Both the position numbers and the translations under genes were made by a program. From Lucifuga dentata (lineage: Eukaryota; Chordata; Actinopteri; Ophidiiformes; Bythitidae), in contig VXCM01005987.1 of assembly GCA_014773175.1 (NCBI GenBank), positions 25,399-89,398 on the forward strand: 64,000 nucleotides of DNA. The letters are read 5' to 3'. Shown here piece after piece: positions 24,201 through 27,200 of the stretch; the first letter of the stretch is position 1; each line of letters opens with the position of its first letter. The notes under the pieces are model-generated. The model was not told where the DNA came from and ran no database searches. It saw only the letters and a program-made list of their open reading frames with translations.

Positions 24201-27200
24201 AGCGTTGCAGAAATGGCAGCATTATCACCATTTTTACCTTTTCGTGGACGTCTCCTTTGGTCGCGTCCACGAGCTCCAAATTACCGTCCAGCAGCTAAAA
24301 AATAAAAAATACAAAATAAAAAAAATCAGACAAAGCAGAGAGTCAGGCGCTGAGCTGAGGAAGACGAGAGTAAAAACGATGAGCTTTGGTTTTTTTTATG
24401 CTGCTTTATAATGATATATTTTATTAATAATCTGAAATCAGGCTCAGATGCCCAACAGAGAAAAGTTAACGATGTAATTCGTTACCATGCACGCTAACCT
24501 CCGATTGTTTATACTAAGTTAGGAGGTGGAGGAGGTGAAGAGGAGGTGGAGGAGGTTGGGAGCGCTAACCTTGTCTCGGAGCATGAGGACCTCCCCCTGC
24601 AGGAAGCTCTGCTCCTCTCTCGCCTGCTCCAGCTCAGCCTCCTTACTCCTCAACTGCTCCTGCAGGCTGAGGAGTTGCTGCAGAAAACACACACACACAC
24701 ACACACACGCAGTGTTGAACTGATACAATGCAAACATGACATAATGAGGAGTTAAATCAGGTACATTTAGCCAATCAGGACCTGGGAGACGTCGACTCGT
24801 GTGTGTGTGTGTGTGTCTGACGTGTGACTGTGAGAAAAAGCAGACGTGTGAGCTGTAAATCAGATGATTACAGAGAGGCGTGTCTTTCTGCAGCGTTTCC
24901 TGTTTTCTGTCTGCAGACATTCAAACTTCTTCAGTTTTATCCTAAATGAATGAATTAGCGTAGCCGCGCTGCTAACCTTGGCTGTGTTTTCTGACGTGTT
25001 GCAGTTTTATGAAATGCTGAAGCTGTTAAATGTTTAAATATTTTGCACCTTGTTGTAAATGCACGACTGCAGTCATTTCTACATGTGTGTGCTGTGACAG
25101 TCACGTGTGTTTTGATGCTGACTTCAGAGCTCCTTTCATGTTTTATTTGACTTCACAACAAAGAATATTTCAGACTTTTTCCTGACAACCTTTTCCGTCA
25201 CGCTGAAACCAGCAGGTGACAAACGCCAAACCGTCCAGCTCCTCTGCAGCAACGCATTACACGAGCCTGCGGTGTGTATGTGTCTGTGTGTGTGTGTGTG
25301 TGTGTTCTATCACTGCTCTTACTTTAGATCGAGAAAGACAGGAAGTCAAGGCAAATCAGGCTGACTCGTCGAAAGCGAGCAGCGTGCTGTGACAAAGCTT
25401 TCTGCGCCGCTTTATGAAATCGCTGAAGCAAAGCATTATGGGAGAGTCAGCACTGCTGCAGCACTTCCTGTTTGTTACTTTAGGAAAGTAAACTCAGCTC
25501 AAAATGACATGAACGCATGCAGAGAGCTGCAGGACCTTCAAACGCTAAAAACAAGAAATCGAGAAAGACTTCCTGTTATTCAATATTTTCTTGTCCGAGG
25601 AAAAATAACCTCATCACACATACCTGCATTGGATTATTAGGAAAGGAAAGGAAAGGAAGAGAAGGAAAGAAAGGGAAGGAAAGAAAGGAAAGGAAAGGAA
25701 CTCTGAGAACTCAGGTTACGAAAGTGTAACCTACCTGCTGCATATTGTGCATGCTCTGCTGCAGCAGCTGGATCTGAGCCTCAGGACTGTGTGTGTGTGT
25801 TGGTGTGTGCGTGTGTGTTGGTGTGTGCGTGTGTGTTGGTGTGTGTGTGTGTGTTGGTGTGTGTGTGTGCTCGTCGTCCGGCCGGCTGGTCTTCCTCAGC
25901 AGCTCCACCTCGTTCCTGTAGGCATCCAGCTGCCAACGCAGGGAGTCGTTCTCCTCTCTGAGAGACGCCTGAGTCTGCTCCCCCACTCCTACAGGACAGG
26001 AGGAGAGGAGGAGAGGAGGAGAGGAGAGGAAGAGAGGAGAGGAGAGGAGCTTCAGTTTAATCTCAGAGTTTGAGAGAATTAAAGCCTCTCTCAGCAGCTG
26101 AGATGCGTTCATGTGTTTGGTGCTCAGCAGGAAAACCTGATTCCTGTCCGGTTTTTATCACAGAAACGTGTTTTTCTACAGCAAAGAAACCACAGCATCA
26201 TGGGTCAGGAGGCGGGAGATGAAACACGCTACATTTCAACGTATGACGAAGTTAAGAAAGTTAAGAAGCTGAAGAAAGAGTTCAGAAAATCAGAGACTTT
26301 ATCCTGCTGGACATATTATTTTATGTCCATGTTAAATGAAAAAATAAGAATGACATTTCAGTTGTGTGTACTGGAATGAACTGAAACCAGCCTGGAAGGT
26401 AGGAAAAACAATTCTAATAATTAACGCTCCAGTTTCATGTTTTAGAAACATAACGTAACATGTATGTGTTGTATTTATTGGGCTCAAACATGCAAAATCA
26501 CTGGTATGGTCCTTTATCATCATACTGTGTCACCACAAACGGCAGTTCTCGTGTGGGTGGAGCACCTACCGAGCACCAGCACCTGATTGGTGGAAAGGCG
26601 GCGTGTTCAGGTTCGTACCGTTTTCCTCCAAACGCGTCTTCTTACAGGGGTTTTCATCAGAGTCGTCGTCCGACATCTCCATCTCCTCCTCCCTCCTGAT
26701 GCCCATGATCTCCTCGCTGTGGGCGTTCCTCAGCTCCTGTAAGGGCACAGACAGGAGGCGCATCCTCAGGAGCTCCACCCACTCCACCTCAAAACCCACT
26801 CCACCTCACAATCCACTCCACCTATTACACCAATACAACCCACTCCACCCGTTACACCATCTCAACCCACTCCACCCACTACACCCATTACACCATCACA
26901 ACCCACTCCACCCATTACACCATCACAACCCACTTCACCCACTGCGCCATCACAACCCACTCCACCTGTCACACCACCACAATCCACTCCACCCATTACA
27001 CCAATACAACCCACTCCACCCATTACACCACTACAACCCAACTCCACCCATCCAAACTATTACAACCCACTCCACTCGCCCACGCCATCATAATTAAACA
27101 GCAGGTAATGCAGGGTTAGGGTTTATGAATGAGGTNCTCCACTCGCCCACGCCATCATAATTAAACAGCAGGTAATGCAGGGTTAGGGTTTATGAATGAG

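What the first reader, a model, noticed from the sequence alone, without database searches (positions are those of the whole stretch)
25735..25988. A CA microsatellite has become coding sequence in enox1
Exon 9 reads straight from the conserved LDAYRNEVELLRK through an 84-bp CA-rich tract into the conserved QLLQQSMHNMQQ. The tract codes 28 residues of HTHTPT units in the linker between two coiled-coil segments of a surface redox protein. His-rich tracts can bind metals, and ENOX proteins are reported to bind copper. The tract is unstable by nature, so length alleles and frameshift alleles are expected. In RNA it is also a (CA)n hnRNP L target inside an exon, so it could control exon inclusion.
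Basis: partly seen in the sequence, partly recalled or inferred. Interest (0 to 1): 0.75.

Follow-up and report, generated by a model that had tools for sequence, protein, structure and literature searches.

The report
Expanded His-Thr linker in fish ENOX1
In this fish the ENOX1 protein carries an unusually long histidine-threonine stretch between two helices; related fish have a shorter version at the same place, so it looks like a lengthened old protein linker and not a piece of repeat DNA that has newly become coding.

Summary
Exon 9 of enox1 (minus strand, 25988-25735) reads in frame through a CA-rich tract (25869-25789, 27 residues, (HTHTPT)x4+HTH). Coding exons E1-E13 join into one 600-residue open frame.

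The interpretation needs changing. The tract is not a pure CA microsatellite but an 18-bp in-frame unit, about 4.6 copies. Its longest perfect CA run is 16 bp. Nor is it new to the gene: 54 of 114 parsed euteleost records have HTH in this linker, e.g. Polymixia DDEHTHTQTHTHSPEG. The simplest history is Q to P in an inherited HTHTQTHTH module, then about three 18-bp duplications.

Beyond the finding: the linker is 22 residues in 116 of 116 parsed tetrapod/coelacanth records and 24 of 27 from elopomorph/otomorph fish, but in 2 of 114 from euteleosts, where it ranges from 14 to 48. Length constraint apparently lapsed on the euteleost stem; His-Thr, Gly-rich or Leu-Asn-Gln-Gly tracts grew there in different lineages. 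AlphaFold2 shows the tract as low-confidence coil between two helices.

Metal binding and hnRNP L control have no direct support here. Skipping exon 9 would break the frame.

The parts
15023..53403 (-). enox1 coding region, start ATG at 53403-53401, stop TGA at 15025-15023; 14 coding exons
   Evidence: Exons placed by tblastn with a recalled ENOX1-like query, borders read by eye, E1-E13 join to 600 residues without a stop; best orthologue hits 86% identical over 100% of the joined query
25735..25988 (-). coding exon 9, 254 bp, phase 1 to 0
   Evidence: Splice sites and phases; Pfam PF23267 49.2 bits vs cut-off 27
25789..25869 (-). 81-bp tract, (CAC ACR CAC ACA CCA ACA)x4 + CAC ACA CAC = (HTHTPT)x4 HTH
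   Evidence: TRF period 18, 4.6 copies, 96%; codons listed
25888..25983 (-). conserved helix before the tract (residues 2-33 of the exon 9 translation)
   Evidence: AlphaFold2 helix 2-33, pLDDT block means 78, 96, 93 for residues 1-30
25738..25785 (-). conserved helix after the tract (residues 68-83 of the exon 9 translation)
   Evidence: AlphaFold2 helix 68-83, pLDDT block means 89 and 80 for residues 71-84
24570..24677 (-). coding exon 10, continues the coiled region
   Evidence: Borders; Pfam PF23267 29.2 bits in the open frame that holds it
15023..15221 (-). last coding exon (E14), broken as assembled by a 66-bp duplication around a single N at 15149
   Evidence: Exact 66-bp direct copies on both sides of the N; frame breaks there

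Best explanation
The tract is a lineage-specific lengthening of an inherited His-Thr patch in a disordered linker of ENOX1. An ancestor had one module like HTHTQTHTH, coded by an interrupted CA run. Q (probably CAA) became P (CCA). The resulting 18-bp unit then duplicated in frame about three times. The linker tolerates this because in euteleost fish it is a flexible spacer between two helices, whose length is no longer fixed as it is in tetrapods and most other teleosts sampled. The tract most likely acts as a nearly neutral, proline-punctuated flexible spacer. SHOWN: in-frame tract, 18-bp unit, homologous shorter patch in relatives, fixed versus variable length by clade, predicted coil between helices. 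INFERRED: order of the mutations, the ancestral codon, near-neutrality, and transcription and translation in this animal.
For: 18-bp unit structure; the four full copies differ only at one synonymous site, ACA/ACG. Relatives carry HTHTQTHTHSPEG (Polymixia), VHTQTHTHPHSPEAQ (Oreochromis), HTHTHAHSPEVQ (Genypterus, sister in the tree, 93/96). Linker of exactly 22 residues in 116 of 116 parsed tetrapod/coelacanth and 24 of 27 elopomorph/otomorph records, against 2 of 114 in euteleosts (14-48); the state '22' changes 3 times on a 40-row tree. Other compositions in the same slot: Gly-rich in lumpfish, sticklebacks and kin, LNQG in a mudskipper and two unnamed records. 20 of the 27 tract residues have pLDDT under 50, between two helices; the Polymixia model also breaks at 437-452. 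Prolines in 77 of 86 distinct euteleost linkers against 2 of 29 in tetrapods/coelacanth.
Against: No RNA, population data or DNA from relatives was available, so the codon-level history is inferred from proteins. Genypterus has HTHTHAH, without Q or P, so the Q-to-P step is not pinned to a branch; the window's nearest rows by path length are others (Stegastes 0.14, Xiphias 0.14). Genypterus also lacks the RPDD that the window keeps, so some of the contrast may be loss in Genypterus. A few records lack sequence at or after the site (P0026, P0055, P0242). Differential loss of teleost-duplication copies is not excluded. The assembly has join artefacts elsewhere, so the copy number could be off.
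Confidence: 0.78

Rival explanations
1. A non-coding CA microsatellite was newly captured into the exon.
For: CA/GT repeats are common in this window: 39 perfect runs of 12 bp or more, 3 of them within the tract.
Against: The same slot already codes HTH in 54 of 114 parsed euteleost records. The repeat unit is 18 bp with regular interruptions.
Confidence: 0.07
2. The expanded His-Thr tract was selected because it binds metal (copper or zinc) and tunes ENOX1 redox or partner binding.
For: 10 His in the linker against at most 7 in 114 parsed euteleosts, with H-x-H spacing that could hold metal in general chemical terms (inference). ENOX1 is listed among human copper proteins (PMC9599751, PMC11083455; passages).
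Against: His is not conserved: 7 of 114 parsed euteleost linkers have none, and gobies and lumpfish fill the slot with other residues. None of 116 parsed tetrapod/coelacanth linkers has H-x-H. No metal data.
Confidence: 0.08
3. The CA-rich RNA is an hnRNP L/LL site that controls inclusion of exon 9.
For: hnRNP L binds CACA and interrupted CA sites, and the CD45 exon 4 silencer is an exonic example (PMC3823766, passages). A few orthologue models lack sequence here (P0026, P0242), which could be splice variants.
Against: Skipping exon 9 (254 bp) shifts the frame, stop after 409 residues. Both splice sites look strong by eye. No transcript data. Orthologues whose linkers lack His-Thr still carry both flanks.
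Confidence: 0.04
4. The copy number is an assembly artefact (collapsed or duplicated 18-bp units).
For: 13 of the window's 27 single Ns are flanked by exact 61-67 bp duplications, including one in the last coding exon.
Against: The nearest Ns are at 23936 and 27136, and no 61-67 bp duplication lies in exon 9. The artefact has a different size and, where found, carries an N.
Confidence: 0.06

Closest known systems
ENOX1 orthologues of acanthomorph fish with a short His-Thr linker patch (e.g. Polymixia lowei P0015, Oreochromis niloticus P0008, Genypterus blacodes P0020)
   Same: Same gene, same position, similar flanks (DAYRNEVELLRK ... SPE.Q.QLLQQ)
   Different: Linker 22-32 residues with 4-5 His in these three, against 44 residues and 10 His here
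Gymnodraco acuticeps ENOX1 (P0121)
   Same: Expanded His-Thr-Pro tract at the same site, HTLAHTHTPAHTHPHTHS
   Different: Irregular, 28-residue linker, 7 His; on a different branch, with Sebastes and Cyclopterus 96/92, so probably independent growth
Coding tandem repeats (in-frame minisatellites) in disordered protein linkers
   Same: Unit length a multiple of three, growth by unit duplication, tolerated in a disordered spacer (the class is named from general knowledge)
   Different: Here the unit is itself an interrupted CA run, giving a His-Thr-Pro repeat rather than a single-residue repeat
Exonic (AC)n microsatellites in fish (PMC8186053, abstract and passages seen)
   Same: CA-type repeat inside an exon; that survey reports a lower percentage of dimer repeats in exons (0.37-1.77%) than in non-coding regions
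   Different: Only one run in the tract (16 bp) reaches that survey's 14-bp cut-off; the array is an 18-bp repeat

Membership tests
ENOX1 (ecto-NOX disulfide-thiol exchanger 1) | Match to the ENOX1-like domain PF23267 above its cut-off | tested here: met
   49.2 bits (exon 9 frame) and 29.2 bits (exon 10 frame) against 27
ENOX1 (ecto-NOX disulfide-thiol exchanger 1) | Full-length orthology to named ENOX1 proteins | tested here: met
   Up to 86% identity over 100% of the joined 639-residue query, best hits named ENOX1; placed among percomorph ENOX1. ENOX2 was not aligned as a control
ENOX1 (ecto-NOX disulfide-thiol exchanger 1) | RRM domain | tested here: inconclusive
   PF00076 is precomputed for most listed orthologues and the window's exons align along their whole length, but the window's own RRM was not scanned
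ENOX1 (ecto-NOX disulfide-thiol exchanger 1) | Surface NADH oxidase / thiol exchange activity, copper binding | not testable with these tools
   Needs protein
CA dinucleotide microsatellite | Long uninterrupted (CA)n array | tested here: not met
   Longest perfect run 16 bp; 18-bp unit scores 150 against 94 for the 2-bp unit
Coding minisatellite (in-frame tandem repeat) | Unit longer than 6 bp and a multiple of 3, inside an open exon | tested here: met
   18-bp unit, 4.6 copies, exon 9
Coding minisatellite (in-frame tandem repeat) | Copy-number polymorphism in the population | not testable with these tools
   No reads or second individual available

The most novel reading that the evidence does not exclude
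A coiled-coil spacer whose length stayed at 22 residues across tetrapods, the coelacanth and most non-euteleost teleosts was broken by prolines and freed on the euteleost stem, changing how ENOX1's two helices work together (for example from one rigid rod to a hinge). The His-Thr, Gly and Leu-Asn-Gln-Gly tracts then tune that hinge, with His-rich versions sensing metal or pH.
Probability: 0.1. Interest if true: 0.6.

Novelty: new member of a known kind. Interest (0 to 1): 0.35.

Why it matters
It corrects an attractive story: the sequence probably did not turn from junk repeat into protein here, it lengthened something already there. It also shows a protein spacer held at one length in the tetrapods, coelacanth and most of the older teleost branches sampled, which became free to vary in one large fish group and was then filled with different simple repeats in different families. 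That gives a natural experiment on when a helical linker stops being constrained, in a protein whose mechanism is poorly understood.

Tried and rejected
Rejected or put low: new capture of a CA microsatellite (many relatives already code His-Thr there); hnRNP L-controlled isoform (exon 9 skipping breaks the frame); CA slippage as the main mode of change (perfect runs at most 16 bp, +/-2 bp stops the frame). My first length ranking (136 of 143 relatives parsed) made the window's linker the longest, but its pattern had missed seven records; the notebook entry still says so and is superseded. With a wider pattern (257 of 263 parsed) two goby-type linkers are longer (48: P0127, P0138), so the window (44) has the longest His-Thr linker found but not the longest linker. 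Of the six unparsed records, P0187, P0196 and P0262 also look like 22-residue linkers by eye; P0026, P0055 and P0242 lack sequence there.

Led nowhere: the search of the window's own assembly did not complete. Paper searches for coding CA or His-rich repeats (15 of 15,564 listed; 12 of 40; 12 of 30) and for ENOX1 (20 of 188 listed; 15 of 30; 10 of 165) showed no title or abstract start about this linker; these are listings only, so this is not proof that nothing is in print. A coiled-coil register analysis was not run.

Full report
1. The gene. E1 (ATG at 53403) to E13 join into 600 residues with no stop; the 13 donors begin GT and the 12 acceptors of E2-E13 end AG, which is partly so because I chose them that way. 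The last exon (15221-15023) is broken in the assembly by a 66-bp duplication around one N. The joined protein is up to 86% identical to fish proteins named ENOX1 over its full length.

2. The tract. Exon 9 is 254 bp, phase 1 to 0. Its regular tract, 25869-25789, codes (HTHTPT)x4 HTH. Tandem Repeats Finder prefers an 18-bp unit (4.6 copies, 96%, score 150) to a 2-bp unit (75%, score 94). The four full units differ only by ACA/ACG, a synonymous change shared by two neighbours, which fits unit duplication. Perfect CA runs of 8 bp or more inside the tract are 8, 8, 13, 13 and 16 bp; the window has 24 perfect CA/GT runs of 20 bp or more, none in the coding exons counted. About 0.75 would be expected there by chance, so that zero proves nothing.

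3. Relatives. Three searches listed 120 proteins each out of 1603, 557 and 1517 hits; together they gave 263 different records. Some are isoforms or fragments of one species and many are closely related, so the counts are of records, not of events, and the lists are the best-scoring part of larger hit sets. In acanthomorphs the slot reads, for example, RKEQIKASRPDDEHTHTQTHTHSPEGHIQL (Polymixia), RKEQSRASRPEDDHVHTQTHTHPHSPEAQIQL (Oreochromis), RKEQSKEHTHTHAHSPEVQVQL (Genypterus). The window reads RKTSRPDDE(HTHTPT)x4HTHSPEAQIQL. It has 10 His; among 114 parsed euteleost records the maximum is 7 (Gymnodraco). Its His+Thr count is 24, against at most 12 in those records. Its length of 44 is exceeded by two goby-type linkers of 48 (P0127 unnamed, P0138 Periophthalmus).

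4. Clade pattern. With one pattern for all records, 257 of 263 were parsed. Length 22: tetrapods plus coelacanth 116 of 116 (4 of 120 unparsed); elopomorphs/otomorphs 24 of 27 (the others 21, 21, 24); euteleosts 2 of 114 (2 of 116 unparsed; range 14-48). Counting distinct linkers only: 29 of 29, 19 of 22, 2 of 86. Linkers with proline: 2 of 29, 6 of 22, 77 of 86 distinct. H-x-H: 0 of 116, 14 of 27, 82 of 114 records, so a His patch without length change is already present in part of the older teleost branches. I assigned fish to clades from species names by recall, checked by look-up for three (Genypterus, Clupea, Esox). Unnamed records P0127 and P0135 were put with the euteleosts (the tree joins P0127 to Periophthalmus; P0135 was not placed), and P0238 and P0259 with the tetrapods because they came from that search.

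5. Tree. With the linker columns left out, 39 of the 263 fetched records plus the window gave a euteleost clade with 100/100 support and a long stem (0.11), and put the window beside Genypterus blacodes, an ophidiiform, with 93/96 (bootstrap not fully settled). An earlier quick tree of 58 rows agreed, 92. By plain path length the nearest rows are Stegastes, Xiphias and Centroberyx (0.14 each), because Genypterus has a long branch. The state 'linker = 22' needs 3 changes on the tree; by my placing, one in Albula, one on the euteleost stem, one back in Genypterus. The animal is therefore probably a percomorph near the ophidiiforms. Separate loss of teleost-duplication copies could mimic the contrast and is not excluded; by eye no otomorph-type linker appeared in a euteleost species among the listed hits.

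6. Structure. AlphaFold2 on exon 9 with 48 orthologues gives helices at 2-33 and 68-83, and 20 of the 27 tract residues are under pLDDT 50 (pTM only 0.36). The Polymixia protein breaks at 437-452 between helices 402-436 and 453-508, though that model is weak overall (mean pLDDT 55.7, pTM 0.22). Mean helix cost per residue on a recalled scale: tetrapods/coelacanth 0.45, elopomorphs/otomorphs 0.50, euteleosts 0.62, window 0.90. Whether the tetrapod linker is a continuous helix was not tested.

7. Working model. Most likely the linker was a fixed-length, helix-friendly spacer, became a proline-containing flexible spacer on the euteleost stem, and since then has gained and lost simple tracts. In this fish an inherited HTHT-x-THTH module changed Q to P and its 18-bp unit duplicated. 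A one-CA slip would stop the frame within exon 9 or 10, and an 18-bp step would not, so selection should favour whole-unit changes (inference).

8. ENOX1 is listed as a copper protein in two papers (PMC9599751 and PMC11083455, passages seen), but the His residues are not conserved, and none of 116 parsed tetrapod/coelacanth linkers has H-x-H. hnRNP L can bind interrupted CA sites and acts at an exonic silencer in CD45 (PMC3823766, passages seen), so RNA binding is possible. Skipping exon 9 would end the protein after 409 residues, so this would be an off-switch. A few orthologue records lack sequence at or after the site (P0026, P0055, P0242); they may be gene-model errors or splice variants and are the only hint against constant inclusion. 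The fish survey PMC8186053 (abstract and passages) reports dimer repeats at a lower percentage in exons than in non-coding regions.

9. Verdict. The headline should be 'an old His-Thr linker has lengthened'. The clade-wide release of linker length is the more interesting result. It is a new example of a known kind of change.

Noticed in passing
window 1140, 15149, 18422, 19071, 19921, 23936, 27136, 37257, 42730, 45222, 46180, 56391, 59026: 13 of the window's 27 single Ns are flanked by exact direct copies of 61-67 bp, most likely unmerged overlaps left by the assembler. Such two-copy repeats should not be read as biology.
   Followed up: yes
window 15023-15221: One of these duplications lies in the last coding exon of enox1 and breaks its frame as assembled.
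   Followed up: yes
same linker in P0127, P0135, P0138 (goby type) and P0076, P0089, P0110, P0120, P0130, P0142 (lumpfish, stickleback and relatives): The same ENOX1 linker carries Leu-Asn-Gln-Gly-type or Gly-rich tracts instead of His-Thr.
   Followed up: partly
euteleost stem of the ENOX1 tree: Long, fully supported stem branch (0.11) outside the linker: the whole protein may have changed faster when the linker length was freed.
   Followed up: no
P0069 and P0098 (Pleuronectes platessa, Hippoglossus hippoglossus) against P0063 (H. stenolepis): Linker of only 14 residues (RKEQTHSPDAQIQQ) against 28 in a congener; a deletion or a gene-model choice.
   Followed up: no
P0026 (Myripristis), P0055 (Pempheris), P0242 (Panthera uncia): ENOX1 records that lack sequence at or just after the linker; gene-model error or splice variant.
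   Followed up: partly
window 26776-27075: Minisatellite with 27/54-bp periods (ACCCACTCCACCCATTACA-like) starting about 40 bp upstream of the exon 8 acceptor.
   Followed up: no
window 24687-24708, 22457-22472, 43523-43544: CA/GT runs lie within about 30 bp of the exon 10 and exon 12 acceptors and the exon 4 donor, a likelier place for CA-repeat effects on splicing than exon 9.
   Followed up: no
window 6174-7031 (-) and 57277-57573 (+): Open frames that look by eye like pieces of LINE reverse transcriptase; no family search was run.
   Followed up: no
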